A stretch of 64,000 bases of DNA from Pigmentiphaga litoralis. Lineage in GTDB: Bacteria; Pseudomonadota; Gammaproteobacteria; Burkholderiales; Burkholderiaceae_B. The notes beneath the pieces are model-generated. The model made no database searches and had not been told where the DNA came from. It was given only the letters and a program-made list of their open reading frames with translations. The position numbers and the translations under genes are program-made. The DNA lies in NCBI RefSeq assembly GCF_013408655.1, contig NZ_JACCBP010000001.1, positions 1,364,001-1,428,000 of the forward strand. The letters are read 5' to 3'. How positions within the stretch are numbered: the first letter of the stretch is position 1; each line of letters starts with the position of its first letter. Below are positions 15,114 through 39,512 of this stretch, one piece after another.

Positions 15114-17426
15114 CTACCCGATCACACTCCGGATCCGTCCCCCCAGCGGCAGATCACGCAGCCGCCTGCCGGTCGCATCAGCGATCGCATTGTTCAAGGC
15201 GGCCCCCGCCGGACCCTGCGCGGCTTCGCCTGCCCCCAGGAAGGGCATGCCGGGCCGGTCGATGATCTGCACGTCCACCTTGGCGGGCAGCGCCGAAAAG
15301 CGCAGGATCGGATAGGTGCTCCAGTCATAGCTGCGGATCCGCTTCGTGTCGTGCGCGACCTGTTCGAACAGCGTCCAACTGAAGGACTGGATGATCCCGC
15401 CCTCGATCTGATTGCGTACGCCATCCGGATTGACCACCTGGCCGCTGTCCACCGCGGCCGACACTCGCGCGATCCGGACGATGCCGGTGTCGCGGTCGAT
15501 CTCGATTTCCACCGCCATGGCCAGATAGCTCATCAGATTTTTATATTGCGCGAACGCAAAACCGACGCCCGTCCCCGGCGGCCGGGCCGGCCCCTGCTGC
15601 GGTGCGGATCCCTGCTGCAGTGCGGATCCCTGCGGTGCGGATCCCGCTTTCCGCGGCGTCCAGCCAAAGTTGTGGGCCGCCAGTTCCACCACGGCGCGGG
15701 CGCGCGGGTTCGACAGGTGGCGCAGCCGGAATTCGACAGGATCGGCTTGGGCGGCCACGGCCAGTTCGTCCATGAAGCTTTCGATGGTGAACGCATTCAT
15801 GTACGCGCCGAGGCCGCGCATGGCGGACACCCGGATCGGCATGTCGGGCAGGAAGTGGTGCTGCACCTTCAGATTGGGCAGGTCATACAGCGGGATGCTG
15901 TTGCGGTCGCCGCCGCCTTCGGGCATCGGAATCGGCTTGGGCGGCGCGGGCGTGAATGGCTTGGCCAAGGACACGGCCGACATGAAGCGCCCGGCATTCT
16001 CGATCCGCTGATTGTGCGAATTGCTCCAGAGCTCGTACTGCCAGTCGACGATCTTGCCGGACGCATCGAGCGATGCCCGCACGTCGGTGATCATGGCCGG
16101 GTTGTAGGGCTCCCACGTGTGTTCCTGCTCCCGCATCCACTGCAGGCGGATCGGTGTGCCTGGCAGGGCGCGCGCCACCAGCGCCGCATCGGCGGCCGCG
16201 TCGTCCGCGGCGTTGTGGCCATAGCAGCCCGACCCTTCGGTATGGATGCACCGGATGTCGGCGGCGTTCATTCCCAGCAGTTCGGCCAGGCCGCCCCGCA
16301 AGGGAAACACGCCCTGCGAATGCGTCCATACCGTCAGCTTGCCCTGGTCCAGATGCGCCACCGCGCACGATGGGCCGATGGATCCGTGCATCAGATAGGG
16401 TTTGGTGTAGCGCGCCTTGAGCGTTTGCGCAGGCGCCGGCGTCGCGGTGTGCGTATCGGCCACTGGGATTTCGGTGCGGGGCAAGGACAGCAGGGTCGCG
16501 TTGACCTGATCCGGCGATGGCAACACGGCCACTTCGTCCCAGGTGCTTGCGGCATACAGCGCCCGCATGGCCTGGATCGCCTGCCATTCGTCCTTGGCGA
16601 CCACGGCCAGGAAGCTGCCGTCCTGCACCACCTTCACGACGCCCGGCATGGCCTCGACCGCGCCGCGATCCACCTTGACCAGACGTGCGCCATACGACGG
16701 CGGGCGGACGATGCGGGCGTGCATCATGCCCGGCAACCGCATGTCCTGGACATAGGCGATGCCGCCGGTGACCTTAGCCGGAATGTCGACGCGGGGCAGC
16801 GACGTGCCGATCACCTTGTGCGCCTTCGGGTCAATCAGCGGCGACTGCATCGTGGCTTTCTGATGCAGGTCCGCGCCGGCCACTGCGTCACCAAAGGTCA
16901 ACGTGCGGCCATCGGGCGCCCGGATCTGGCCGTTCTGGATCGCCAACGTATCCGCCGCGACGCCCAGGTGTTGCGCGGCGGCCTGCAGCAACAGCCCGCG
17001 TACCTGCGCCGACGCATGCAGGATCGCGGTACCGCTGTCGGCTGTCGAATGGCTGCCGGCGGTGTAGCCCTCGTTGGGCGTCAGGCCCGTGTCCGCGGTC
17101 ACCAGGTGGATGGCAGCGGGCGCCACCTGCAGTTGCTCGGCCGCGATCTGGATAAAGGCGGTGCGAATGCCGGTGCCCAGTTCGGCTTTCCCGGTGTTGA
17201 CGGTGATGCGGCCCGACGCGTCGATGCGCACCCAGGCGTCCAGCATAGGTTCGGTCGACAGGTTGCCGGGCAGCTTGTCCGCGCCCGCGGCCGGCCCGGG
17301 TGTGGCAGCCTCGGTGCTTTGCGCCAAGGCGCGGACGGCGGGCAGCAAGCTGAAGCTGACCGTGAGCGACCCGGCGGCCAGGAACAGGCGGCGTCCGGTG
17401 TTGATGGAGCTGTCAGGCGGCGTCAT
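15114..17426 (-). CDS. Molybdenum hydroxylase large (Mo-cofactor) subunit, nicotinate/isoquinoline dehydrogenase type
   Basis: A 770-residue catalytic subunit of a xanthine-oxidase-family hydroxylase. The N-terminus carries a twin-arginine-like signal ([11 protein letters not shown] plus hydrophobic stretch), implying an exported enzyme as in isoquinoline 1-oxidoreductase. The Mo-domain landmarks are intact: [13 protein letters not shown] near residue 100, [32 protein letters not shown], and the catalytic Glu734 in [11 protein letters not shown]. It overlaps the 2Fe-2S subunit gene by 14 bases and is the last gene of a three-gene operon. Similar three-subunit enzymes include Comamonas nicotinate dehydrogenase; the real substrate is unknown. 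Repetitive [14 protein letters not shown] sequence near residue 620 is low complexity. Confidence 0.88.
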
Positions 17427-17907
17427 CGACAGCCTCCCCGGCGTGCGCGATCGGAGTCGCGGCGGCCGCGGCGACGATCGCCGCCACGATCCGCATATGC
17501 GTGCCGCAGCGGCACAGATTGGGTTCGAGTTCGGCGCGGATCTGCGCTTCGGTCGCGCCCGGCGTGCGATCGAGCAAGGCTTGCGCGCGCATGATCATCC
17601 CGGCAATGCAATAGCCACACTGCGCGGCCTGCTTGTCCATGAAGCCTTTCTGCAGGCGGCCCGGTTTTTCCGCCGTGCCCAGCCCTTCGATGGTCCGCAC
17701 CTTCCGATCGCCCACCGCGCCAGACGGCAACAGGCAGGACACCACGGCGGTGTCGCCCACGATCACGGTACAGGCGCCGCACTGGCCCAGGCCGCAGCCA
17801 TACTTGGCGCCATTGAGCGACAGATGATTGCGCAGCGCATACAGCAGCGGCATGGCCGGATCGATGTCCAGGGTATGCGCCACCCCATTCACATTGAGCG
17901 TGATCAT
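17413..17907 (-). CDS. Molybdenum hydroxylase small subunit, two 2Fe-2S clusters
   Basis: A 164-residue electron-transfer subunit. A plant-type 2Fe-2S domain has GCGLGQCGACTV and a further Cys in VSCLLP; the alpha-helical second-cluster domain has AAQCGYCIAGMIM and NLCRCGTHMRI. It passes electrons from the Mo subunit to the cytochrome. The start at 17907 is chosen because its ATG overlaps the stop of the cytochrome gene in an ATGA arrangement, indicating translational coupling. It is about 40 % identical by eye to the NicA-like protein at 34950. Confidence 0.93.
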   Translation of the reverse strand: MITLNVNGVAHTLDIDPAMPLLYALRNHLSLNGAKYGCGLGQCGACTVIVGDTAVVSCLLPSGAVGDRKVRTIEGLGTAEKPGRLQKGFMDKQAAQCGYCIAGMIMRAQALLDRTPGATEAQIRAELEPNLCRCGTHMRIVAAIVAAAAATPIAHAGEAVDDAA

Positions 17908-19427
17908 TTTTTTTCGTTCTCCTTGCGCATCGTGGTCAGCATGCTGGCCGCGTCGGCCCACGCGGGCCGCACGGCTACCTGAACGCGCAGGTAGGCCGCC
18001 ACGTCCACGATCTGGTCATCGGTCAGCAGGTCGGCATACGAGGGCATGTAATGCGCCGACGTCGACCCTTGCCAGGGGTTGCCTTCCAGGATCATGCGCA
18101 GGGCATTGCGCGGGGTACCGGCCAGCACGTTGCTACTGTCCGCCAGGGACGGCCGCCCGCCGATCGTCATCATCGGGGCCGCCGTGCCGTGGCAGCCTGC
18201 GCAGGTCGACGCGAACAGCACGGCGCCGCGGGACACGCGTTCCTGCTCAGGGCCGGAGGCGGCCCGCAGCTGGGCAGCGTTGACGAGTACCGGGTCGCTG
18301 ACGAGTGTCGGGTCGCTAACGAGTGTCGGGTCGCTGACGGGTGCGGGGTTGCGCACCGGTGCAGGATTGCTCACGGGTGCAGGGTCGTTGCCTTGCCGGC
18401 CGGCCGGACTGACGTCGTTGGCCGGCCCGGACAAGGACAGCAGATAGGTCGCCATCGCCGCCACATCCGACTCGGGCGCCTCTGCCAGATGCTGCGTGAC
18501 CGGCCGCATCGGGCCCGACGCGGCGCCATGCTCGCTGGCCACGCCGGTACGCAAGTACGACACCAGTTGCGCCTTGGTCCAGGGCCGCTCGCCGGCAGCC
18601 AGCGCATTGAGCGGCGGCGCCTGCCATCCGTCGATCACCCCGCCCTCAAAGGCCTTGCCTCGCGCTTCGGCGCCCACGATATTCATGGGCGTGTGACAGG
18701 ACTGGCAGTGCCCCGCGCCTTCAACCAGATAGCGGCCCAATCGCCATTCGGATGAAGCGCTGGACGAAGCACTGGAGGAAGCGCCGGGGGACGCACTGGA
18801 CGAAGCGCTGACCGAAGCGCTCGCCGACGCACTGGCGGACGCACCGGCAGGCGCGTCGGGCAGCGGCCCCTTGTCCAGGAACAGCAGGTTCCATCCCGCA
18901 ACCAGCGGCCGGAAGTTCAACGGGAAGACCAGGGCGTTGGGCACCGGGGGCGCATCCACCGGCGTGCGCGACATCAGATACTGATAGGCCGCGGCAATAT
19001 CCTCGTCGTGCATGCGCGTGAAGTGCACGTACGGAAACGCGGGATACAACAAGTGTCCATCGCGCGAGACACCTTCCCGCATGGCGCGCGTAAAGGCGTC
19101 CAGCGACCAGGCGCCAATACCGGTGTCTACGTCAGGCGTGATGTTGGTGCTGTGGATCGTGCCGAACGGCGTGTCCATCGGCAGGCCGCCGGCGTAGGGC
19201 TTGCCGCCCTTGGCGGTGTGGCAATACAAACAGTCGCCCTGCGACATGACGCGCAGGCCGGCTGCCAGCACGGCCGGATCGGTCTCAAGGCGGGCCGCGG
19301 ATCCACGGCCGCCCGCATCGTCACCCTTCACCGGATCGATGGCAGGCTGCCAGGCGTAGGCCAGCCCGCCCAGACAGGCCACGACCACGACAGCGGCCAC
19401 GCCTGCCACGATGCTTCTTTTTCTCAT
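17904..19427 (-). CDS. Triheme c-type cytochrome subunit of the molybdenum hydroxylase
   Basis: A protein of about 507 residues with an uncleaved anchor or signal helix at the N-terminus (RSIVAGVAAVVVVACLGGLA). Three CXXCH heme sites are seen: CLYCH, CQSCH and CAGCH. The conserved NITPDVDTGIGAWS and LLYPAFPYVHFTRM blocks are typical of the adaptors that carry electrons from periplasmic dehydrogenases to the respiratory chain. It is the promoter-proximal gene of the cytochrome / small / large operon. Two linkers are low complexity: an Ala-Ser tetrapeptide array and a Pro-Val-Ser-Asn/Asp hexapeptide array, each encoded by a DNA tandem repeat listed separately. Confidence 0.9.
   Translation of the reverse strand: MRKRSIVAGVAAVVVVACLGGLAYAWQPAIDPVKGDDAGGRGSAARLETDPAVLAAGLRVMSQGDCLYCHTAKGGKPYAGGLPMDTPFGTIHSTNITPDVDTGIGAWSLDAFTRAMREGVSRDGHLLYPAFPYVHFTRMHDEDIAAAYQYLMSRTPVDAPPVPNALVFPLNFRPLVAGWNLLFLDKGPLPDAPAGASASASASASVSASSSASPGASSSASSSASSEWRLGRYLVEGAGHCQSCHTPMNIVGAEARGKAFEGGVIDGWQAPPLNALAAGERPWTKAQLVSYLRTGVASEHGAASGPMRPVTQHLAEAPESDVAAMATYLLSLSGPANDVSPAGRQGNDPAPVSNPAPVRNPAPVSDPTLVSDPTLVSDPVLVNAAQLRAASGPEQERVSRGAVLFASTCAGCHGTAAPMMTIGGRPSLADSSNVLAGTPRNALRMILEGNPWQGSTSAHYMPSYADLLTDDQIVDVAAYLRVQVAVRPAWADAASMLTTMRKENEKK
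18283..18390. repeat. 18-bp in-frame tandem repeat, six copies
   Basis: Unit ACGAGTGTCGGGTCGCTG, with increasing divergence toward 18390. It encodes PAPVSN/PTLVSD-like hexapeptides between heme domains two and three of the cytochrome. Confidence 0.9.
18754..18849. repeat. 12-bp in-frame tandem repeat, eight copies
   Basis: Unit GAAGCGCTGGAC and variants (GACGCACTGGCG). It encodes an Ala-Ser tetrapeptide linker between heme domains one and two of the cytochrome. Confidence 0.9.
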
Positions 19428-19506
19428 TGAGTGTCCCCCGCATACCGGCATGCGTTGCGGGGCTTACTCTACTGCGGGCAACTTACAGTACGCTGAGCAT
19501 CTGGCG

Positions 19507-28546: not shown

Positions 28547-29128
28547 CTAGCGTAATCCGTCCACGCCCTGGATGGCATCTTTTTCCAGCCCGCCCACGCG
28601 TGCCAGCGGACGTCCGCTATCGGTCACCACGACCGCCACCACGATTTCGTTCGCCCGCGGCGCATCGGCCACGCGGGCTTCCATCGCGTCGAAGTGGCTG
28701 CGTACATACGCGGCGTCCTTGTGGCCCAGCGGCACATCGATGGCGGTGCCCAGCGTGCCCAGCTTTTTCGCGGACGGCACCAGCGCGGCGCCCTTGCCCA
28801 ACACGTCGCGCAGCGGCGCGCCGAGTTTGGGGTGCAGGATGGCTGCGGCGTGTTCGATCTCACCCGCTTCGCCGACGATGGCTGCCTTGCCATAACTTTC
28901 GGCCTGCCCGGGCGCAATGCCCAGCGCGGCCACGCATTTTTCACCCAGCAAGCGGCCCAGTTCGGCGCCGATCTCGACCAGGTCATCCAGATTGCCGCTG
29001 TATCGGCCCGCATACGGATTGGCGATCACGGCCATGGCCAGTGCGCGGCGGGTCGGCGGGCTGACCGCCTGCCCCATTTCGACCCGGATCTCATCGACCT
29101 GCACTACCAGTTTGCGAAGATTCATCAT
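28547..29128 (-). CDS. PF06684 (DUF1185, 'amino acid synthesis') protein, first paralogue
   Basis: A 193-residue soluble protein of PF06684, whose structure from Bordetella (as I recall) is a variant of the chorismate-mutase / YjgF-like fold with unknown chemistry. Conserved blocks are ANPYAGRYSGNLDDLVEIG, ESYGKAAIVGEAGEIEHAAA, ALVPSAKKLG, DVPLGHKDAAYVRSHFDAME and ARVGGLEKDAIQGVDGLR. It is about 45 % identical by eye to the next gene upstream, a tandem duplication that suggests a heteromer or divided function. It lies between the upstream paralogue and the ABC binding protein on the same strand. Confidence 0.88.
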   Translation of the reverse strand: MMNLRKLVVQVDEIRVEMGQAVSPPTRRALAMAVIANPYAGRYSGNLDDLVEIGAELGRLLGEKCVAALGIAPGQAESYGKAAIVGEAGEIEHAAAILHPKLGAPLRDVLGKGAALVPSAKKLGTLGTAIDVPLGHKDAAYVRSHFDAMEARVADAPRANEIVVAVVVTDSGRPLARVGGLEKDAIQGVDGLR

Positions 29129-29163
29129 GGTGTCCTTGCTCGTTCCGATGACGTGGCGCGCGT

Positions 29164-29754
29164 TCAGCGCAACCCGTCCTTGCCCACGATCTGCGATACC
29201 GCCAGGCCACCGACCCGGGCGTGCACGCGCGCTCCCGTGGTCATGGCCAGCACAAAAACGACTTCGTCCGAAGCGGGCGCACCGGGCACCGACACTTCCA
29301 TCGCATCGAAATGGCTGCGCACATAGCTGGCGTTGACGTGGCCCAATGGCACGTCAAGCCGGGTCGATGGCGCCCCGACCTTCTTGGCCGAGATCACGAT
29401 GGCGTGGGTGGGCACGCCCTGGCCTTCCAGCAATTCACGCATCGCGTAGCCGCCAGGCACATGCCATACCGCACCGTGTTCCAGTTCGCCCGCGGCCCCG
29501 ACGATCGCACCCTTGCCATAGCTTTCGATGGCGCTGGCATCGACCTGCATGGCCGCCAGCAGCCGCCGCGCCATATCCAGCCCCACCGGCTTGAGTGCGT
29601 CCATCATCGGCAGCAGGTCGGGTTCATAGCGGCCGGCAAACGGATTGGTCAGCACTGCCATGATCGCGCCGCGCACCAGGGGCGTCGCCGCGGGCGGGCC
29701 ATACTCGTGGAAAATCGTTTCCACGTGGGTGAAGACTTCGCGGATCTCGATCAT
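29164..29754 (-). CDS. PF06684 (DUF1185) protein, second paralogue
   Basis: A 196-residue paralogue of the downstream gene, 35 bases away. It has LTNPFAGRYEPDLLPMMDAL, ESYGKGAIVGAAGELEHGAV, DVPLGHVNASYVRSHFDAME and the terminal ARVGGL...VGKDGLR signature. Start 29754 (MIEIREVFTH) is chosen; the frame runs on to 29889 over an implausible Cys/Arg-rich stretch and the operator. It is the first gene of the DUF1185 / ABC / enamidase-like group, with a striking palindrome 134 bases upstream. Catalysis is unknown; the fold resemblance to RidA/YjgF makes enamine or imine chemistry a reasonable guess. Confidence 0.88.
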   Translation of the reverse strand: MIEIREVFTHVETIFHEYGPPAATPLVRGAIMAVLTNPFAGRYEPDLLPMMDALKPVGLDMARRLLAAMQVDASAIESYGKGAIVGAAGELEHGAVWHVPGGYAMRELLEGQGVPTHAIVISAKKVGAPSTRLDVPLGHVNASYVRSHFDAMEVSVPGAPASDEVVFVLAMTTGARVHARVGGLAVSQIVGKDGLR

Positions 29755-29887
29755 GCATTGTCCTGTGGGTCGAAAAAAACGGGTTGCGGCAGCGGTCATT
29801 GCCGAGCAGCACCACCCATGTGCAAACGCAGGCGCCACGCGCATCATTCGGGTGCGACAGCGCGCCCCATGCACCGCAATATCCCAC

Positions 29888-29995
29888 ATTTCATGTAGTA
29901 CGCACTACATGGAAATCACTGATAAGAAACAATGCAAGGATAGTGCCAGGGCAACCTCGCGCGCGCCGATTCGTTCGGCATTCACTACATGAAAT
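29888..29995. promoter_or_regulatory. Long inverted repeat plus extra half-site upstream of the DUF1185/ABC group
   Basis: ATTTCATGTAGT (29888-29899), spacer ACGC, then ACTACATGGAAAT (29904-29916). This is a 12-base arm pair interrupted by a single extra G. A third half-site, ACTACATGAAAT, an exact match to the arm, lies at 29984-29995. The region is AT-richer than its surroundings and sits in the only gap (29755-30023) before the leftward group, so it is the likely operator-promoter. The regulator is unidentified; a GntR- or TetR-type dimer would fit the geometry. Confidence 0.75.
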
Positions 29996-30023: not shown

Positions 30024-32312
30024 TCAGGCGGGAACGGCGGCGGCGTGCCGTTCACGCAGCGCCGCGCGAATGCGGCCGGGGGTAAATGGCGGTTGGCGCA
30101 AGCGCACGCCGGTAGCATCGAACAGGGCATTGGCGATCGCGGCGGCGCTGGGCACCGACGCCGATTCGCCCGCGCCCATGGGCGGTTCGTCCTGCCGGGG
30201 CATCAGCAGCACGTCGATCTCGGGCACATCCTTGAAACCCAGGATGGGATAGGCGCCCCACTCCCGGCTGATGACGCCAGCCTGGTCGAACTCGACTTCT
30301 TCAAGCAGCACGCGGCTGAGCGACTGGATGGCGTTGCCCTGCAACTGGTGGCGGACGCCAGCGGGGTTGACCATCATGCCGGTGTCCTGCCCGACGATCA
30401 GACGTTCGACCTTCACGCGTCCGGTGGCCGGGTCCACGGCAATCGCGATGGCCCAGGCGGACCACGCCGCGCCGAACCCCGGAAAGCGGCTGTGGATGTA
30501 GCGGGCGTAGGCGAATCCATGACCCCGCAACAGACCGTCGGCATCGGGCTCGCCGCGGCTACCGGTGCGACGGGTCGACCACTGCGCCCGGGCGGCCACG
30601 GCCCGCACCAGGTCCGCGGCGCGGGTGTCATCCAGATGCGCCAGGCGGAATTCCACCGGGTCGCGGCCCGCCGCTTCGGCAAGCTCATCAATGAAGGCAT
30701 CGTGCGCGAACGAATTCGGCAAGGCGGACACGCCGCGCAGCCACGACGCCCGCACAATCGCCGGCATGTCACGGCATATGATCCGTTGCGATGGATACCG
30801 ATACGGCGGGACCGCGGTGCGATCGCCCATCTGCAAGGCCCGCGGGCCCGCCGGCTCGGTGCCTGTCAGCAGCAAGGCCAGCAAGGGGGCATCGTTGGAC
30901 GGATAGCTGGTTGCCAGTTCGTAGGCCGACAAGTTGCCCTGCGCATCGATCGCGCCTTTCACATCGACCAGTTGCGCCGCGCCCTTGGGCTCCCACGCGT
31001 GTTCCTGCTCGCGGCTCAGCTGCACGCGCACCGGCCGGCCCACGGCGCGCGACAGCAGCGCGGCGTCGGCCGCCACGTCATCGGCGCAGTTGCGGCCGTA
31101 GCAACCGGCGGCCTCGTGCCGGATCACTTCGATGCGATCTTCGGTCACGCCCAGCAGGCGGTGCAGATCGATCCGCAGCATGTGCGGGTTCTGGGTGCCG
31201 GACCACACGGTCAGGCCGTCGTCACGCACGTCGGCCACCGCGCATGACGGGCCGATCGACGCATGCAGCTGATACGGCCACACGTAGGTGGCCGACACGG
31301 TGGCAGCCGCGCCTGCGAACCGCGCGCCTATGTCGTCGCCATCTTTGAGCACGCGGTCGCTGGCGGGATTGGCCCGCAACGCGCGTTCCAGATTGTCGAG
31401 CGCCGGTGCGGCGGGAATGGGTTTCCAGTGGACAACCAGCCGGGTCGCGGCCTGGATGGCCTGCCATTCGGTGTTGGCGACGACGCCCACAAAGTCGCCT
31501 TGCGTAACCACGGCAATCACTCCGGGCATGCAGCGCACCGCGGCATCGTCCACACGCAGCAGGCTGTGCCCGATAAAGTCTCCGACATCTCTCCCCGGAT
31601 ACGGGGGACGCACGACCCGGCCATGCACCATGCCCGGCAGGCGGACGTCGTGCACGTACACATGCGTGCCCACGGCCTTGCCCGGAATATCGGTGCGCGG
31701 GGTGTCCTGGCCCACGATGCGGTAGGCCGACGGCGGCTTGAGCGCAAGCTCGTCCGCCAGTTTCAGATCGACGGCGTCGTCGCCCAGCAAGGTCCAGTAG
31801 TCGGCAGTGGCCGGAGCGCCCGGCGTTCCGGCATTGTTAGGGCCATACACCACGCCGTCTTCCACCCGCAGCGCATGCGCGTCAACGCCGAACTGCACTG
31901 CAGCCCGAGCCAGCAGGAAGGCACGCGCTTGCGCCGCGGCGCGGCGCAGTGGAATGGACGCGATCTGGATGGTGGCGCTGGCAATGGTCGGGCCCTGGTT
32001 CGGCACGGACTCGGTATGCCCGAGCACCATTTCCACCCGATTTACCGCCACGTCCAGTTCTTCGGCCACGATCTGGGCGAGCGACGTGCGAATACCTGTC
32101 CCGAGGTCGACGTGGCCATTGAAAGCCAGCACCCGTCCGCCGGGCAGGATCGCGATGAACACATCGGGATGCGACGGCACGTAATCCGACGCGGCGCCTG
32201 GCTGGCCCGGTGCGGGCTTGACGCCGGGCAACGGGTCGCGCACGACACGCAGCGCCGGCCGCGCGGCCAGCAGCGCCAGGTGGTCGGCGCGATGCTGCGG
32301 CAGGTCAGCCAC
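30024..32312 (-). CDS. Stand-alone molybdenum hydroxylase large subunit (NicB Mo-domain homologue)
   Basis: A 762-residue Mo-cofactor subunit without cytochrome domains. All catalytic landmarks are present: FNGHVDLGTGIRTSLAQ at residues 65-80, [43 protein letters not shown], and the catalytic Glu716 in GAGESASVPSAAA. No export signal is visible. It lies 60 bases downstream of nicX on the same strand, inside the nicotinate gene group, and shares the ending DATGVRLRQPPF with the degenerate NicB-type fusion at 35420. The start shown is a GTG with no good ribosome site; an ATGA-coupled ATG at 32376 opens only a 23-codon frame offset by one base, so the true N-terminus is uncertain. Confidence 0.85.
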   Translation of the reverse strand: MADLPQHRADHLALLAARPALRVVRDPLPGVKPAPGQPGAASDYVPSHPDVFIAILPGGRVLAFNGHVDLGTGIRTSLAQIVAEELDVAVNRVEMVLGHTESVPNQGPTIASATIQIASIPLRRAAAQARAFLLARAAVQFGVDAHALRVEDGVVYGPNNAGTPGAPATADYWTLLGDDAVDLKLADELALKPPSAYRIVGQDTPRTDIPGKAVGTHVYVHDVRLPGMVHGRVVRPPYPGRDVGDFIGHSLLRVDDAAVRCMPGVIAVVTQGDFVGVVANTEWQAIQAATRLVVHWKPIPAAPALDNLERALRANPASDRVLKDGDDIGARFAGAAATVSATYVWPYQLHASIGPSCAVADVRDDGLTVWSGTQNPHMLRIDLHRLLGVTEDRIEVIRHEAAGCYGRNCADDVAADAALLSRAVGRPVRVQLSREQEHAWEPKGAAQLVDVKGAIDAQGNLSAYELATSYPSNDAPLLALLLTGTEPAGPRALQMGDRTAVPPYRYPSQRIICRDMPAIVRASWLRGVSALPNSFAHDAFIDELAEAAGRDPVEFRLAHLDDTRAADLVRAVAARAQWSTRRTGSRGEPDADGLLRGHGFAYARYIHSRFPGFGAAWSAWAIAIAVDPATGRVKVERLIVGQDTGMMVNPAGVRHQLQGNAIQSLSRVLLEEVEFDQAGVISREWGAYPILGFKDVPEIDVLLMPRQDEPPMGAGESASVPSAAAIANALFDATGVRLRQPPFTPGRIRAALRERHAAAVPA

Positions 32313-32372
32313 GGAAGGCGCCCCCAGCCATCGGGCGGGCGTCGTGTCGAATTGCTGGCGCCGCGGCGTGTG

Positions 32373-33428
32373 TCATGCGGCCTCCGCCTTGGCCCAGGCA
32401 TCGAGCACGCGGCCGTCCTGCACGACCGTGTCGCCGTCCAGGGACACCGTGCAATGCCGCATCGGGATGTCGATGTGGCAGGTGGTGCTGCGTTCCCCGC
32501 CGCCTTCGTTGTTCGGCCCCATCGAAAACAGGAAGTTGCCTTCGAAGGCGCGAGCGTCCATGCCTATCGTCGCTTCGCGGTCGTACTGCGCCAGCGTCGA
32601 CCAGTAGGCCAGGGGCTGCAGGCCCCAGCCGATATGCGACATCGCATACGCTTCGGGATCCTTGAACGACGACATGTATTCCTTGAGCAGGTCGGCATGC
32701 ATGCCGCCGCTGATGGACCGCACGTAGCCGTCCTTGACGACCAGTTCGATGGGGTCGCTGATGTAGCTTTTCATGGGCAGAAGGATGTCGCCGCGGTCCA
32801 GCACGATGCGGCCTTGCGTGCCGCCTTCGTTTGGAAACGTCAACGCAAAGCCGCTTGGCCAGTGGTCCCACCGGCCAGGCTCGTCCACGAAACCGTATTC
32901 GCGGATGGCCGGGAATTCACCCAATGCGCAGCGCAGGTCAGTGCCAGCCGGCGACGTGATGTGCATTTCCTTCGCGCTTTCAATGCGCGCCGCGGCGGCC
33001 ATGACGCGTTCGCGGTCAGTCAGGCTGGGCAGGATGCGGCACAGCACCTCGGGCGGTTCGACCGCCAGCAGGATCTTGGTGCCGCTTTTCAGGATCTCGT
33101 GCTGCTCTGGCGAGAACAGCAACGTCATCAGATCCAGCACCAGGTCGCTTTCTTTCAGCGCCGCAATGGCCGCGCGGTTGCCCGTGAGAGGGGTCGTGCC
33201 GAGATACGACAGCGAGTCGCGGCTCAATGCCTTTTCGCCATTGACCGGCGGCAAGTCCAGGCAGTTGACGATCGCACCCAATGACGACACGGCGGCAATG
33301 GCGCCGCGCAGCGTCTGCGGATGGGTGGATGCGCCCGTCAGGATCGTGACGACCTGCCCGGCTTCCAGTTTCGACAGCGTCAGCACCTGGCGCCACGCTT
33401 CAAGCATCTGATGATCGCTAACCGCCAT
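32373..33428 (-). CDS. nicX: 2,5-dihydroxypyridine 5,6-dioxygenase
   Basis: A non-heme Fe(II) extradiol-type dioxygenase that opens 2,5-dihydroxypyridine to N-formylmaleamate in aerobic nicotinate degradation. The 351-residue product matches P. putida NicX in length. It shares with it, from memory, EPPEVLCRILP-like text, EYGFVDEPGRWDHWPSGF, SHIGWGLQPLAYW, MDARAFEGNFLFSMGPN and CHIDIPMRHC. The His of SHIGWG and the His/Asp of CHIDIP correspond to the known iron ligands. It is the first gene of a leftward pair with the Mo subunit and is divergent from nicC. Confidence 0.95.
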   Translation of the reverse strand: MAVSDHQMLEAWRQVLTLSKLEAGQVVTILTGASTHPQTLRGAIAAVSSLGAIVNCLDLPPVNGEKALSRDSLSYLGTTPLTGNRAAIAALKESDLVLDLMTLLFSPEQHEILKSGTKILLAVEPPEVLCRILPSLTDRERVMAAAARIESAKEMHITSPAGTDLRCALGEFPAIREYGFVDEPGRWDHWPSGFALTFPNEGGTQGRIVLDRGDILLPMKSYISDPIELVVKDGYVRSISGGMHADLLKEYMSSFKDPEAYAMSHIGWGLQPLAYWSTLAQYDREATIGMDARAFEGNFLFSMGPNNEGGGERSTTCHIDIPMRHCTVSLDGDTVVQDGRVLDAWAKAEAA

Positions 33429-34870
<1,442 letters not shown>

Positions 34871-34887
34871 TCTATCGTTGTTGCCGG

Positions 34888-34920
34888 CAACGTTGTGATC
34901 GTCAACGTTGTGATCGTCAA
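34888..34920. repeat. 15-bp tandem repeat upstream of nicA
   Basis: CAACGTTGTGATCGT occurs twice in tandem (34888-34902, 34903-34917), followed by CAA. It lies between the nicC stop and the nicA start; a TATAGT hexamer follows at 34935-34940, ten bases before the nicA ATG. Confidence 0.85.
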
Positions 34921-34949
34921 TCTTTTCTCTGACGTATAGTGCTGGGCTT

Positions 34950-35423
34950 ATGGATAACGGGTACCGAAACTTCGTGTTGAACGTGAACGGCGCAGGCGTC
35001 GTCGTGCACGCGGACCCGGAAACGCCCCTGCTGTACGTGCTGCGCAATGATCTGGAACTGAACGGCCCGAAGTTTGGCTGTGGCCTGGGTCAATGCGGCG
35101 CCTGTACCGTGCTGGTGGACGGCGTGGCGGCGCGATCGTGCGTCATCCCGGTCAAACGGGTTGGCGCGCGGCAGGTCACCACGCTGGAAGGGCTCTGCCA
35201 CAACGGCCAGCCCGGCAAGACACAACAAGCTTTTATCGATGCCCAGGCCGCGCAATGCGGCTATTGCCTCAACGGCATGATCATGACGGCCGAGGCGCTG
35301 CTGCGCCGCGACCCGCATCCTTCCGAACAGACGATTCGCGACGAACTGCACTACAACCTGTGCCGCTGCGGCACGCACGTCGAAATTCTTGCGGCCGTGA
35401 CACGCGCCGCCCAGGCGGAATGA
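34950..35423 (+). CDS. nicA: Nicotinate dehydrogenase small subunit, two 2Fe-2S clusters
   Basis: A 157-residue electron-transfer subunit of the hydroxylase that makes 6-hydroxynicotinate. It has a plant-type cluster domain (GCGLGQCGACTVLVDG plus ARSCVIP) and a helical cluster domain (AAQCGYCLNGMIM, NLCRCGTHVEI). Length and motifs match P. putida NicA. The stop overlaps the ATG of the next gene (ATGA), indicating coupled translation with the NicB-type fusion. It is 79 bases downstream of nicC. Confidence 0.95.
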   Translation: MDNGYRNFVLNVNGAGVVVHADPETPLLYVLRNDLELNGPKFGCGLGQCGACTVLVDGVAARSCVIPVKRVGARQVTTLEGLCHNGQPGKTQQAFIDAQAAQCGYCLNGMIMTAEALLRRDPHPSEQTIRDELHYNLCRCGTHVEILAAVTRAAQAE

Positions 35424-38400
35424 CCATGGCCCAAGGCCTGCCCGCCCGCCCCGGTTCCGCTGACACCCGTGACCTGACGCCACCCGATCCGGGCACGACG
35501 CTGCACGGTGTCGTGCTGCGTCCGCCGCGCATGGACTGGGATGGGCAGCGGTACACCGGCATGACCTTGCGCCATGCCGACGACCGCGCCGTGCGCACGA
35601 TCCCGGGTGTCTTCCCTGCCGTGGTCGACCGGCATTTTGCCGGCGTCGTGGCGGTCAGCGCCGTGCTGGCCGACCAGGGCGCGAGCCGGCTGGTGCTGGA
35701 GTGGAATGCGCCGCTGCGGGAACGCAAGCAAACGGCGGGAAAGACGGACGCGGCAGGTGAAGCAGGTGCTGGCCAGCGGGTGGCGGGGGCAGCGGCTGCT
35801 GGTACTGGTGTCGGTGTCGGTGTCGATGTCGGTGCGGATGCAGTTGCGCGTGCGGGCACCGCCGGGGCAGACACATTTTCTCGTGATTATGCGTGGCCGC
35901 AGCCTCAGGCGGCCGACGCGTGCTGGGCCGTGGCTTGGGTGCATACGCAGGGCGTATCGATCTGGGCGCCGGTGGTGGATGCCGGCGCGTTGCGTGTAGA
36001 AATCGCCGCCTTGCTCTCGCTTGCAGTCGATCAGGTGACGGTGTTGCCGACTGGGCAACCGGGGCATGCCGGGGCGTTCGATGCCGCGGCCGACGCGGTG
36101 CTGCTGTCACGCGCGGTGAACCGCCCGGTGCGCGTACGGTCAAGCATGCCTGCGGCGGCGGTCATGCCGACCCGGTTGACGGCAACGGTGCAGGCAGCTG
36201 CGTTGGCAACATCGACGTCGCCCACATCAACGTCGCCTACATCCCCGTTGCCAGCATCAACGTCGCCCCCATCCACGTTGCCAGCATCAACATCGTCCAC
36301 ACCCCCGTTGCCGACGCCTTCGTTGCCAACATCAACGTTGCCAACATCAACGTTGCCAACATCAACGTCGCGGATCACAACGTTGCAGATGACAACGGGT
36401 TCGCCGGTGGTGCGCAGGCCCAGCCTGGCCCGCTTGCTGACCAGCGGCGCAGCGGGCGGCATCGGGCCCAACGGCCACCTGGCTGGCAACGACTCAACCG
36501 GCAACGATTCAGCCGGCAACGCTTCAACCCGCAGCGCTTCAACCGGCAGCGAATCAACGGGCAGCGAATCAACCGGCAACGATCCAGCCAGCGACAGCGC
36601 GGCCAGCAACACCTCAACCATTGGCAACGCCTCTGCCACCCCCGCGCGAGCCCACACCGCGCACCCGGTGGTTCCCTACGACGCGGTCCCGGCCATCGAC
36701 TGGCACCCGGACGCCAGCCTGGACAACTCAAGCACAGGCACCACCCCCGAGGGCCTGCCCGCCGCGCAGATCTTTGCGCTCGAATCCTTTATCGACGAAC
36801 TGGCCGCGACGCAAGGCGTGGACCCGGTGGCCTTGCGGCTCACGCAGCTTGAGCAAGACCCGCGCGGAGAGGCCCTGGTGCGCAGCGTCGCCGAACGCGC
36901 AGGCTGGGTAGGCGGGTCCCGAGGCGCGCCCCACAGCACGTCTCCAGGCCCGACCCGAAGCGCACGCCAAAGCACGTCTCCAGGCACGTCTCCCGGCACA
37001 TTCCCACGAGCGCCCCGAGGCACCGGCCGCGGCTTTGCCTACAGCAGCGTGATCGACGAGAGCAGCACTCCGCCCAGCCGCACCTGGTCGGCCTGGGTGG
37101 CCGACGTTGCCGTCGACCCTGCCAGCGGCAGCGTCGCCGTGACTCGGGTCGTGGTCGGTCACGACGTGGAACATCTCGCCCCCGGGCCGGTCAAGCACGC
37201 ACAGGCTCCCATCGAACGGCAGATCGACGGCGTGACGCGCGCATTGCTTGCGCCCCCTGCCGGCTTTGACGACTGGGCAGGCCAGGCGCCCGCCTCCCGG
37301 TCCGGTGATAGCCCCACGTCAACAGCCGTGATGCCGTCCGCCGCAGGCACGACCGACATTGCCTGGGTCGCGCCGGGGGGCGATGTCGCCACGGCCCGCC
37401 CGCTGGCGTGGACCGCCGCTGCGGGCTTGCCCGCCGCCGCCGCCGTTGCCAATGCCATTTATGACGCCACTGGCGTGCGCCTGCGGCAACCGCCGTTCAA
37501 TGGCGATGCCGTCCGACAGCAACTGCGGGGCGGCACCGCCGCGCCCGAACGGCGCATTGCCTATGCCTGGCTGGGCGGCATTGCCGCGGCAGCGGTCGGC
37601 CTGACCGTGGCCGCCCTGCCCTGGCGGCCCGCGATCGCCCCGGTGCAGGCGCCTGACCTGTCGGTGTACTCGGCCGAAGCCATTGAACGTGGACGGTTGG
37701 TCGCCGCGGCCAGCGACTGCGTGGTGTGCCACACCGCCCCCGGCGGCACGCCCAATGCTGGCGGACTGCATCTGGACACGCCGTTCGGGCAGATCGTCAC
37801 CACCAACATCACGCCGGATGTCGAAACCGGCATAGGCAACTGGTCGTACGCGGCGTTTGAACGCGCCATGCGCCAGGGCATCCATCGCGACGGCCGGCAT
37901 CTGTACCCGGCGTTTCCGTACACGTCATTCGCGAAGTTCTCCGAAGCCGACATGACGGCCTTGTACGCCTACATGATGTCGCAGCCCGCCGTGCGGTCCA
38001 CACCCGCGCCCACGTCGCTGGCCTTCCCGTACAGCATCCGCCCGTTGATGGCAGGCTGGAACACCTTGTTCCATGACGACCAGCCCTACAAGCCCGACCC
38101 CACGCAAAGCCTGCAATGGAATCGCGGCGCCTACCTGGTTCAAGGCGCGGGCCACTGCGGCGCCTGCCACACGCCGCGCAATGCGCTGGGCGCCGAACAA
38201 CGAGGCAAACCGGCATTCCTGGCGGGCGGCGAGGCCGAAGGGTGGGAAGCACCCGCCTTGAACAGCCTGTCGCGCGCGCCGATTCCCTGGAACGAAGGCG
38301 ACTTTTTCCAGTATCTGAGCACCGGCTTTTCGCCGCGCCACGGGTCGGCGGCCGGCCCGATGGGACCGGTGATCCACGGACTGCAGCAACTGCCGTCGGT

Positions 38401-38947
38401 GGACGTGGCAGCCATGGCGCATTACCTGGCCAACCTGGATGGCGTGACCACGCACCAGGCCAGCGGGGCCCGCGAGGCCCTTGAAGCCAGCCAGGGCACG
38501 ACGTCCCGGCCCGGCATCGCACCGGGGCTGGCCCCTGCGCAGGACCCAGCCCTGCATGCGTCGATGCACGCTGCGGAACTGGCGCGCATCGAAGCCGCCA
38601 CCGCACCCCGCGCCAGGGTGTTCGATGCAGCGGGCGAACGGATCTTTGAAGGCGCCTGCGCGGTCTGCCACGAACCTCAGGCCGGACCGGCCCTGGCAGG
38701 CATCAAGCTGTCATTGGCCCTGAACACCAATCTGCACAGCGACCAGCCCGACAACGTCCTGCAGTCCATCCTGCAGGGCATCGACAGCCCGGCAAATGAT
38801 GCGCTGGGCGACATGCCTGCATTCGGCAGCACACTGAACGACCGGCAGATCGTGGACGTCGTCCACTACTTGCGGGACCGGTTTGCGCCGGACCGCCCGG
38901 CCTGGCGCAACGTCGAAGAACGATTGACGTCCCTGCGCAAGCATTGA
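35420..38947 (+). CDS. nicB: NicB-type cytochrome c fusion with degenerate molybdenum domain
   Basis: A 1175-residue protein laid out like P. putida NicB (Mo domain, then triheme cytochrome), but with an eroded Mo half. The usual first 200 residues are missing; it opens at GTTLHGVVLRPPRMDWDG. GCYGxNxADD has become GHAGAFDAAADAVLLSR, the REQEHxWEP block is lost, and the catalytic GAGE reads WTAAAG, so the Glu is gone. Two 15-bp repeat tracts encode Thr/Ser/Pro (about 262-326) and Gly-Asn-Asp-Ser-Thr (about 356-400) linkers. One membrane helix lies near residues 714-735. Heme sites CVVCH (767), CGACH (913) and CAVCH (1080) are intact. Probably an anchored electron acceptor; catalysis is likely supplied by the subunit at 30024. 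Start 35420 or 35426. Confidence 0.85.
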   Translation: MTMAQGLPARPGSADTRDLTPPDPGTTLHGVVLRPPRMDWDGQRYTGMTLRHADDRAVRTIPGVFPAVVDRHFAGVVAVSAVLADQGASRLVLEWNAPLRERKQTAGKTDAAGEAGAGQRVAGAAAAGTGVGVGVDVGADAVARAGTAGADTFSRDYAWPQPQAADACWAVAWVHTQGVSIWAPVVDAGALRVEIAALLSLAVDQVTVLPTGQPGHAGAFDAAADAVLLSRAVNRPVRVRSSMPAAAVMPTRLTATVQAAALATSTSPTSTSPTSPLPASTSPPSTLPASTSSTPPLPTPSLPTSTLPTSTLPTSTSRITTLQMTTGSPVVRRPSLARLLTSGAAGGIGPNGHLAGNDSTGNDSAGNASTRSASTGSESTGSESTGNDPASDSAASNTSTIGNASATPARAHTAHPVVPYDAVPAIDWHPDASLDNSSTGTTPEGLPAAQIFALESFIDELAATQGVDPVALRLTQLEQDPRGEALVRSVAERAGWVGGSRGAPHSTSPGPTRSARQSTSPGTSPGTFPRAPRGTGRGFAYSSVIDESSTPPSRTWSAWVADVAVDPASGSVAVTRVVVGHDVEHLAPGPVKHAQAPIERQIDGVTRALLAPPAGFDDWAGQAPASRSGDSPTSTAVMPSAAGTTDIAWVAPGGDVATARPLAWTAAAGLPAAAAVANAIYDATGVRLRQPPFNGDAVRQQLRGGTAAPERRIAYAWLGGIAAAAVGLTVAALPWRPAIAPVQAPDLSVYSAEAIERGRLVAAASDCVVCHTAPGGTPNAGGLHLDTPFGQIVTTNITPDVETGIGNWSYAAFERAMRQGIHRDGRHLYPAFPYTSFAKFSEADMTALYAYMMSQPAVRSTPAPTSLAFPYSIRPLMAGWNTLFHDDQPYKPDPTQSLQWNRGAYLVQGAGHCGACHTPRNALGAEQRGKPAFLAGGEAEGWEAPALNSLSRAPIPWNEGDFFQYLSTGFSPRHGSAAGPMGPVIHGLQQLPSVDVAAMAHYLANLDGVTTHQASGAREALEASQGTTSRPGIAPGLAPAQDPALHASMHAAELARIEAATAPRARVFDAAGERIFEGACAVCHEPQAGPALAGIKLSLALNTNLHSDQPDNVLQSILQGIDSPANDALGDMPAFGSTLNDRQIVDVVHYLRDRFAPDRPAWRNVEERLTSLRKH
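36203..36397. repeat. 15-bp in-frame tandem repeat, 13 units, inside the NicB-type fusion
   Basis: Unit TTGCCAACATCAACG, with three exact central copies and increasing divergence outward. In the gene frame it encodes LPTST/SPTST pentads; it replaces conserved Mo-domain sequence. Confidence 0.92.
36485..36619. repeat. 15-bp in-frame tandem repeat, 9 units, inside the NicB-type fusion
   Basis: Unit GGCAACGATTCAACC and variants, encoding GNDST/GSEST pentads, separated from the first array by about 87 bases. Confidence 0.92.
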
Positions 38948-38969: not shown

Positions 38970-39449
38970 TCAGTCCGCCGTGTCCAGCCCCATCTTGCGC
39001 AGCAGGTAGATGATCGCCACCCGTTCGGCGGGGTTCAGATCCCCGAAGGTCAGTTCCGTGATCTCATCCGCAAAGGGCTCCATTTCCTGCACCAGCCCGG
39101 CGCCTTCCGGGGTCAGCGACACGACCACCTTGCGCCGGTCGCTCGGATCGTGGTCGACGGACAGCAGCCCCCGCGTCTTGAGCCGGTCGATCACCCCGCG
39201 AATCGTGGCCTGATCGATGGCCGTGATCTTGACGATATCGCTGAGCGAGCAGCCGCCCTTGTCGCGCACGGCGCACAGCGTGACGAACTGCGCGGCTGTC
39301 AGTTGCGAGTCGGGAATGATCTGCTGGAACAGGGCCATGTGCCGCTGATAGGCGCGGCGCAGCAGATGCCCGACCTGGTCTGAAAAAACATAGGCCGGTT
39401 CGGGGGGCGGCGCGACTGACGTCGCGCGCTTGCGGGAAGAAGGAGGCAT
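38970..39449 (-). CDS. nicR: MarR-family regulator, NicR/BpsR-like
   Basis: A 159-residue winged-helix repressor. It shares with NicR of Pseudomonas and BpsR of Bordetella, from memory, DQVGHLLRRAYQRHMALFQQ, LTAAQFVTLCAVRD, TAIDQATIRGVIDRLKTRGL, DPSDRRKVVVSLT and ERVAIIYLLRKM. Those regulators repress nicotinate genes and are released by 6-hydroxynicotinate, so the same role is inferred here. The ATG at 39449 is chosen over a TTG at 39503; the N-terminal 20 residues are Pro/Arg-rich and variable. It is convergent with the NicB-type fusion, 22 bases away. Confidence 0.9.
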   Translation of the reverse strand: MPPSSRKRATSVAPPPEPAYVFSDQVGHLLRRAYQRHMALFQQIIPDSQLTAAQFVTLCAVRDKGGCSLSDIVKITAIDQATIRGVIDRLKTRGLLSVDHDPSDRRKVVVSLTPEGAGLVQEMEPFADEITELTFGDLNPAERVAIIYLLRKMGLDTAD

Positions 39450-39512
39450 CGGGGCGGCAACGAGAGAGCGACGTGCCGCCTGCGGCGGACTGCCGACAGG
39501 CAAGGAAAACGC

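What the first reader, a model, noticed from the sequence alone, without database searches (positions are those of the whole stretch)
30024..38947. Split nicotinate hydroxylase: a vestigial Mo domain carries the hemes while an intact Mo subunit is encoded separately
Seen: the NicB-type fusion at 35420-38947 keeps three CXXCH sites. Its Mo half lacks about 200 N-terminal residues, has lost GCYGxNxADD and REQEHxWEP, and shows Ala where GAGE has the catalytic Glu. The 762-residue protein at 30024-32312, in the same gene group on the other strand, has all of these but no hemes. Both end in DATGVRLRQPPF, so they are paralogues. Known: P. putida NicB is one fused polypeptide. Inference: the hydroxylase is now a three-part enzyme (NicA, the separate Mo subunit and the degenerate fusion), with the old Mo domain kept as a docking or scaffold piece. 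This would be an unusual case of subfunctionalisation in the xanthine-oxidase family.
Basis: partly seen in the sequence, partly recalled or inferred. Interest (0 to 1): 0.85.

Follow-up and report, generated by a model that had tools for sequence, protein, structure and literature searches.

The report
Nicotinate hydroxylase with dead-domain dock
An enzyme that starts vitamin-B3 (nicotinate) breakdown in this bacterium and many relatives appears to be built from three proteins, one of which carries a worn-out, inactive copy of the catalytic domain that selection still keeps and that probably holds the working copy against the membrane.

Summary
The fusion (35420-38947, +) has three CXXCH and a Mo-hydroxylase-like half that lacks about 225 N-terminal residues and the active-site motifs; the 762-aa protein (30024-32312, -) is a complete Mo subunit. 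NicA, NicC and NicX homologues lie between them.

It is not peculiar to this genome. Of 60 degenerate fusions read, 59 have a separate full-length Mo gene, usually within 9 kb; the exception has a truncated one. Ten genomes with an intact fused NicB show no close separate Mo gene. A tripartite NicA/NicB1/NicB2 hydroxylase is already in print for Bordetella and Burkholderia gladioli, so the split itself is known.

Not found in print in my searches: the dead domain is under purifying selection, is predicted to keep the Mo fold, and goes with a change of side. Mo subunits paired with free cytochromes have Tat signals (9 of 9); those of fused or dead-domain type do not (0 of 52) and begin with what looks like a decayed Tat signal.

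Best reading: fusion put the Mo module into the cytoplasm; after duplication the cytochrome kept a gutted Mo domain as cytoplasmic dock for NicA-NicB1. Docking and location are inferred, not shown.

The parts
30024..32312 (-). NicB1: separate, complete Mo-binding subunit (762 aa, GTG start), no hemes, no Tat signal
32373..33428 (-). NicX homologue (2,5-dihydroxypyridine dioxygenase)
   Evidence: phmmer to 7cn3, E 2.1e-113; no Pfam hit
33605..34870 (+). NicC homologue (6-hydroxynicotinate 3-monooxygenase); homology begins at residue 44, so the true start is probably the GTG at 33734
   Evidence: phmmer to 5eow, E 9.1e-163, query 44-416; sequence
34950..35423 (+). NicA: [2Fe-2S] subunit, 157 aa
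   Evidence: Pfam Fer2_2 and Fer2
35420..38947 (+). NicB2: degenerate Mo domain fused to a tri-heme cytochrome c (1175 aa); start overlaps the NicA stop (ATGA)
35501..37528 (+). Dead Mo domain of NicB2 (about residues 28-703, with low-complexity S/T/P inserts)
37556..37612 (+). Predicted membrane helix of NicB2 (about residues 713-731), K/R-rich on the N-terminal side
   Evidence: Hydrophobicity scan, flank counts, helix 711-730 in the model
37667..38944 (+). Tri-heme cytochrome c domain of NicB2; CXXCH at 37718-37732, 38156-38170 and 38657-38671
38970..39503 (-). MarR-family regulator next to the fusion
   Evidence: Pfam MarR; 90% identical gene at the same place in P. litoralis

Best explanation
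This is a tripartite, membrane-linked nicotinate dehydrogenase. The free Mo subunit (NicB1, 30024-32312) hydroxylates the substrate and passes electrons to the [2Fe-2S] protein NicA and on to the tri-heme cytochrome of the fusion (NicB2, 35420-38947). The Mo domain of NicB2 cannot bind the cofactor or catalyse. It is the remains of a once intact fused NicB and is kept as a folded module on the cytoplasmic side of the membrane helix, where it holds NicA-NicB1 at the anchor. Proposed history: (1) an ancestral set had Tat-exported Mo/FeS proteins plus a periplasmic cytochrome with an N-terminal anchor; (2) the Mo gene fused upstream of that N-in/C-out anchor, so the Mo domain became cytoplasmic and its Tat signal decayed; (3) the fused gene duplicated, one copy losing the hemes (NicB1), the other losing the Mo site but keeping its docking half (NicB2). 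Shown here: anatomy, loss of the active-site motifs, co-occurrence with a separate Mo gene, purifying selection, the Tat contrast. Inferred: cytoplasmic location, docking, order of events, electron route.
For: 59 of 60 degenerate fusions have a full-length separate Mo gene, the exception a truncated one; 10 of 10 genomes with an intact fusion show no close separate one. 141 of 176 Mo-invariant columns fall below 80% in the 34 clade II fusions, yet 20 columns at 536-742 stay near-invariant in both clades. dN/dS 0.10-0.45 (upstream part) and 0.12-0.27 (core) against 0.04-0.13 for the cytochrome in 11 pairs. AlphaFold keeps a Mo-like fold. Tat signal in 9 of 9 Mo subunits with a free cytochrome, 0 of 10 fused, 0 of 42 dead-domain type; K/R excess on the Mo side of the helix in 60 of 60, 10 of 10 and 9 of 9; no Tat-like start in 60 of 60 fusions.
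Against: No contact between the dead domain and NicA or NicB1 was tested. Free-cytochrome sets work, on paper, without any such domain. Location rests on patterns and hydrophobicity, not on trained predictors or experiment. If the Mo and FeS parts are inside and the hemes outside, the electron path across the membrane is unexplained. In clade I the dead domain is so eroded that the profile finds most rows only from about position 534, which is odd for a precise dock. Fold alignment has high rmsd (6.5-6.9). NicC and NicX were absent from the fetched loci of 5 of 5 intact fusions looked at, so those may serve another pathway or have the genes elsewhere. The Tat contrast may reflect few independent events.
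Confidence: 0.55

Rival explanations
1. The dead domain is a passive remnant: the cytochrome needs some N-terminal cytoplasmic stretch for folding or insertion, and the Mo relic merely serves as that, without touching NicA-NicB1.
For: It is looser under selection than the cytochrome, tolerates long low-complexity inserts and is strongly eroded in clade I. Free cytochromes manage with a short N-terminus.
Against: The same 20 residues are kept in both clades and the Mo fold is predicted to persist; a mere tail would not need them.
Confidence: 0.2
2. The dead domain takes the place of a second Mo protomer: it pairs with NicB1 through the old dimer face (pseudo-homodimer) rather than acting as a dock for NicA.
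For: Xanthine-oxidase-family Mo subunits commonly dimerise (recalled, no call); the fusion keeps a Mo-like fold.
Against: No dimer face was mapped and no complex could be predicted here.
Confidence: 0.15
3. The window locus hydroxylates another N-heterocycle, not nicotinate; the anatomy is as described but the substrate label is wrong.
For: No isochorismatase-family (NicF-type) place lies in the window (16 places elsewhere in the genome), and two DUF1185 genes and a branched-chain-type ABC transporter sit beside it.
Against: Strong NicC and NicX homologues lie between the Mo and NicA genes. NicC is at 19 and NicX at 15 of 23 degenerate-fusion loci looked at.
Confidence: 0.1

Closest known systems
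Tripartite nicotinate hydroxylase NicA/NicB1/NicB2 of Burkholderia gladioli and Bordetella (PMC10269826, passages; it cites Brickman and Armstrong 2018, not held)
   Same: Three-part hydroxylase in a nic locus; homologues of both window proteins occur in Bordetella bronchiseptica (P0023; P0142).
   Different: The passages say only that the enzyme is tripartite; a dead Mo domain, its retention or a change of side is not mentioned there.
NicAB with fused NicB (P. putida type; recalled for P. putida, read here as the intact fusions of 10 genomes and 120 homologues named mostly as Paraburkholderia)
   Same: NicA plus Mo domain, membrane helix and three hemes; Mo domains are the nearest relatives of NicB1.
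   Different: There the fused Mo domain is intact and no close separate Mo gene was found.
Three-gene nicotinate dehydrogenase of 21, 82 and 46 kD (NdhS, NdhL, NdhM; review PMC10331938, section 10 read)
   Same: Separate FeS and Mo subunits for the same reaction.
   Different: A 46-kD third subunit has the size of a free cytochrome, with no room for a dead Mo domain (the review calls it a flavoprotein); sequences were not compared.
Membrane-bound aldehyde dehydrogenase of Gluconobacter oxydans (8gy3)
   Same: Best solved relative of NicB1 (8gy3_C) and of the NicB2 cytochrome (8gy3_A).
   Different: Its cytochrome subunit of 444 residues carries no Mo domain.

Membership tests
Xanthine-oxidase-family Mo large subunit (30024-32312) | Mo-site motifs and whole-length large-subunit fold | tested here: met
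Xanthine-oxidase-family Mo large subunit (Mo half of 35420-38947) | Mo-site motifs and catalytic Glu | tested here: not met
   First ~225 residues, GCYG, REQEHxWEP and Glu716 missing; no MoCoBD hit in Pfam
Xanthine-oxidase-family Mo large subunit (Mo half of 35420-38947) | Large-subunit fold | tested here: inconclusive
NicB, fused type | Intact Mo domain and tri-heme cytochrome in one polypeptide | tested here: not met
   Three CXXCH present, Mo site lost
Tripartite NicA/NicB1/NicB2 nicotinate hydroxylase | Separate genes for FeS, Mo and cytochrome-bearing parts in a locus with nicotinate genes | tested here: met
   recurs in relatives
Tripartite NicA/NicB1/NicB2 nicotinate hydroxylase | Hydroxylates nicotinate to 6-hydroxynicotinate | not testable with these tools
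   Needs an assay; inferred from neighbouring NicC and NicX
Exported Mo/FeS/free-cytochrome sets (aldehyde-dehydrogenase-like) | Twin-arginine signal on the Mo subunit and a cytochrome without Mo domain | tested here: not met
   for 30024-32312; met by the neighbouring set at 15114-19451

The most novel reading that the evidence does not exclude
A molybdenum hydroxylase module changed sides of the membrane when its gene fused upstream of an N-in cytochrome anchor, its Tat signal decaying into an ordinary N-terminus. After duplication one copy's catalytic domain was gutted but kept, in two large clades of relatives, as a cytoplasmic pseudo-subunit that docks the live copy. In one paralogous locus of this genome a Mo subunit of the exported clade was captured by such a dock and lost its Tat signal too.
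Probability: 0.35. Interest if true: 0.75.

Novelty: new variant of a known kind. Interest (0 to 1): 0.55.

Why it matters
It offers a clean, testable case of a catalytic domain turned into a scaffold in the xanthine-oxidase family, with the presumed steps still alive in present genomes: exported three-gene sets, intact fusions, and split sets with a dead domain. It sharpens an open question: how electrons from an inner-face Mo/[2Fe-2S] module reach periplasmic hemes. It also warns annotators: several homologues of the fusion are named 'nicotinate dehydrogenase subunit B', although the Mo half cannot be catalytic.

Tried and rejected
Plain pseudogene decay of the Mo half: rejected, since dN/dS is below 1 in 11 of 11 pairs and the same residues are kept in two clades. 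A genome-specific oddity: rejected by 60 cases. Two independent origins of the dead domain: suggested by the cytochrome tree, where the degenerate fusions make two clades, but one origin is not rejected (AU p 0.46).

Not achieved: the P. putida NicB sequence. A class-wide search hit 2 of 229 genomes at E <= 1e-80, one of them the own genome, and a Pseudomonas-centred search was not accepted. No tool predicts complexes; no trained signal or topology predictor was at hand.

Corrections made on the way. A first dN/dS run included codons overlapping NicA in some rows; one search replaced it, but there the upstream start is a fixed offset in 9 of 11 pairs and the core start in 3 of 11, and in G049/G009 and G714/G741 the upstream part still overlaps NicA in part (these give the two highest values, 0.45 and 0.43). 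A first Tat rule scored 6 of 9 free-cytochrome sets, because the N-terminal stretch was cut wrongly in three rows; these were read in full and a new rule, written after seeing them, gave 9 of 9. That rule hits 206 of 12200 shuffled N-termini. The 0 of 118 and 0 of 120 in wider sets are by the first rule (2 more rows had no anchor motif).

Rows left out. G638 was dropped because its fusion is cut by the contig end. 29 of the 77 rows were not taken up, mostly matches of free-cytochrome size, though G621 may be another fusion. Many weaker free-cytochrome matches were not read, so the 9 free-cytochrome sets are the ones read, not all. Tat was tested on 42 of the 59 separate Mo genes of degenerate-fusion sets. 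Two of the 9 free-cytochrome sets (G440, G563) are of a more distant Mo subfamily (37-38% identity). In one search, 2 of 120 fusions hit the loose GxGE pattern somewhere, 1 of 120 has only two CXXCH. Clade I has Glu at column 716 in 27% of rows, without the rest of the site.

In print: searches were seen as listings, several cut (15 of 803 listed; 15 of 130; 12 of 28). None of the listed titles or abstract starts describes a dead Mo domain or a change of side. Brickman and Armstrong 2018 and Jimenez 2008 are not held, so absence from print is not shown.
Full report
What is there. The fusion at 35420-38947 (+) is a 1175-aa frame whose start overlaps the NicA stop. Residues about 28-703 resemble a Mo subunit, a hydrophobic helix lies at about 713-731 and CXXCH sites follow at 767, 913 and 1080. 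Pfam sees the cytochrome part but no Mo domain. The protein at 30024-32312 (-) is a complete Mo subunit. Between them lie strong homologues of NicX and NicC and the [2Fe-2S] protein NicA; a MarR gene follows the fusion. The genome is probably a Pigmentiphaga: P. litoralis has the same genes in the same order at 92-98% protein identity for Mo, NicA, NicC and NicX.

How widespread. Among the best 120 homologues of the fusion 0 of 120 have GCYG; among the best 120 of the Mo subunit 120 of 120 have it. Whole genomes were searched with the paralogous fusion or a clade I fusion: 61 of the own family, 300 of the order and 200 of a second family. Places were then read and sorted into three kinds. Kind A: intact fused NicB, 10 genomes. 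Kind B: Mo, FeS and free cytochrome as three genes, 9 sets read. Kind D: degenerate fusion, 60 rows (the window, its paralogue in the same genome, P. litoralis, 19 further genomes, and 38 of the second family). Of the 60 D rows 59 have a full-length separate Mo gene. In 36 of the 38 second-family rows, and in G402, it is on the same contig, 4.6-8.8 kb from the fusion between matched stretches; G587 has it on another contig. The exception, G601, keeps only the first 306 residues of a Mo gene. Of the 10 A genomes, 5 show no second Mo place at E <= 1e-150 and 5 none above 43% identity. A and D occur within one genus (g351).

Neighbours. NicC homologues are within the fetched stretch at 19 and NicX at 15 of 23 D loci looked at, and at 0 of 5 A and 0 of 7 B loci. 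The stretches are 10-23 kb, so absence means only not nearby. That the A enzymes act on nicotinate rests on names given by sources.

History. In the Mo tree the separate subunits of D, 41 of 42, form one side of a branch next to the A domains (support 87 with all rows, 93 without the odd row; under the tool's mark of 95). In the cytochrome tree D makes two clades on an unresolved backbone; one origin is not rejected. The odd row is the paralogous locus of this genome (L009): its Mo subunit is rejected from D (AU p 0.001) and from A plus D (p 0.008), while its cytochrome is weakly rejected from B (p 0.044 and 0.024). That locus looks like a B-like Mo subunit paired with a D cytochrome, and it has no Tat signal. 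Branches there are long.

Selection. In 11 pairs of relatives dN/dS is 0.10-0.45 in the upstream part of the dead domain, 0.12-0.27 in its core and 0.04-0.13 in the cytochrome. All upper bootstrap bounds are below 1, the highest 0.99 in a 49-codon segment. Limits of that run are given under Tried and rejected.

Side of the membrane. All 9 B-type Mo subunits read begin with a twin-arginine signal. None of 10 A and 42 D Mo sequences does. By an earlier, stricter rule none of 118 and 120 further homologues does either. The A and D N-termini align with the B signals, but the hydrophobic stretch carries an Arg in 50 of 52. None of 60 D fusions has a Tat-like start, and K/R are in excess on the N-terminal side of the helix in 60 of 60 D, 10 of 10 A and 9 of 9 B. 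As c-type hemes are attached in the periplasm (established knowledge, no call), this predicts hemes outside and the Mo domain, live or dead, inside. The window itself holds the contrast: the set at 15114-19451 has a Mo subunit with a twin-arginine start, an FeS protein and a free tri-heme cytochrome.

Reading. Fusing Mo to an N-in anchor forces the Mo domain inside. A later split then needs something inside to hold the freed Mo subunit, and the gutted domain is the obvious candidate. I commit to that at 0.55. It is not shown that the dead domain touches NicA or NicB1, and the path of electrons from an inner-face [2Fe-2S] cluster to outer hemes is unexplained.

What is known. PMC10269826 (passages) says that the hydroxylase is tripartite (NicA, NicB1, NicB2) in B. 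gladioli and Bordetella. PMC4572682 (passages) lists nicB1 and nicB2 in Delftia. PMC10331938 (passages, outline and section 10) describes a three-gene enzyme of 21, 82 and 46 kD. PMC6837509 (passages) speaks of nicA and nicB only. So the tripartite build is known; the dead domain, its selection and the link to Tat loss were not seen in the listings searched, which do not cover most subscription papers.

Noticed in passing
15114-19451 (-): A separate Mo/FeS/cytochrome set: Mo subunit with a twin-arginine start (15114-17426), FeS protein (about 17410-17907) and free tri-heme cytochrome (17904-19451).
   Followed up: partly
L009:6205-12219 (-), same genome C1:3276000-3295000: Second tripartite set with a degenerate fusion; its Mo subunit groups with the exported type in the tree but has no Tat signal. 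No NicC or NicX homologue was found in that 19-kb stretch, so its substrate is unknown.
   Followed up: partly
35420-38947, residues about 265-320 and 347-414: Long S/T/P/N-rich low-complexity inserts in the dead domain, low confidence in the model; close relatives differ in total length (1175 aa here, 1041 aa in P. litoralis).
   Followed up: no
28547-29889 (-): Two neighbouring DUF1185 (AA_synth) genes beside a branched-chain-type ABC transporter; the same pair type is near the intact fusions of other genomes.
   Followed up: no
window: No isochorismatase-family (NicF-type) place in the window although 16 exist elsewhere in the genome, so the lower nicotinate pathway is not fully clustered here.
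   Followed up: partly
L149 and L152 (G719, G654): Two small genomes of the genus that otherwise has fused or dead-domain sets carry Mo and cytochrome as adjacent separate genes, with a Tat-bearing Mo subunit.
   Followed up: no
L154:8611-9528 (G601): Truncated Mo gene (first 306 residues) in the one genome whose degenerate fusion has no full-length partner.
   Followed up: partly
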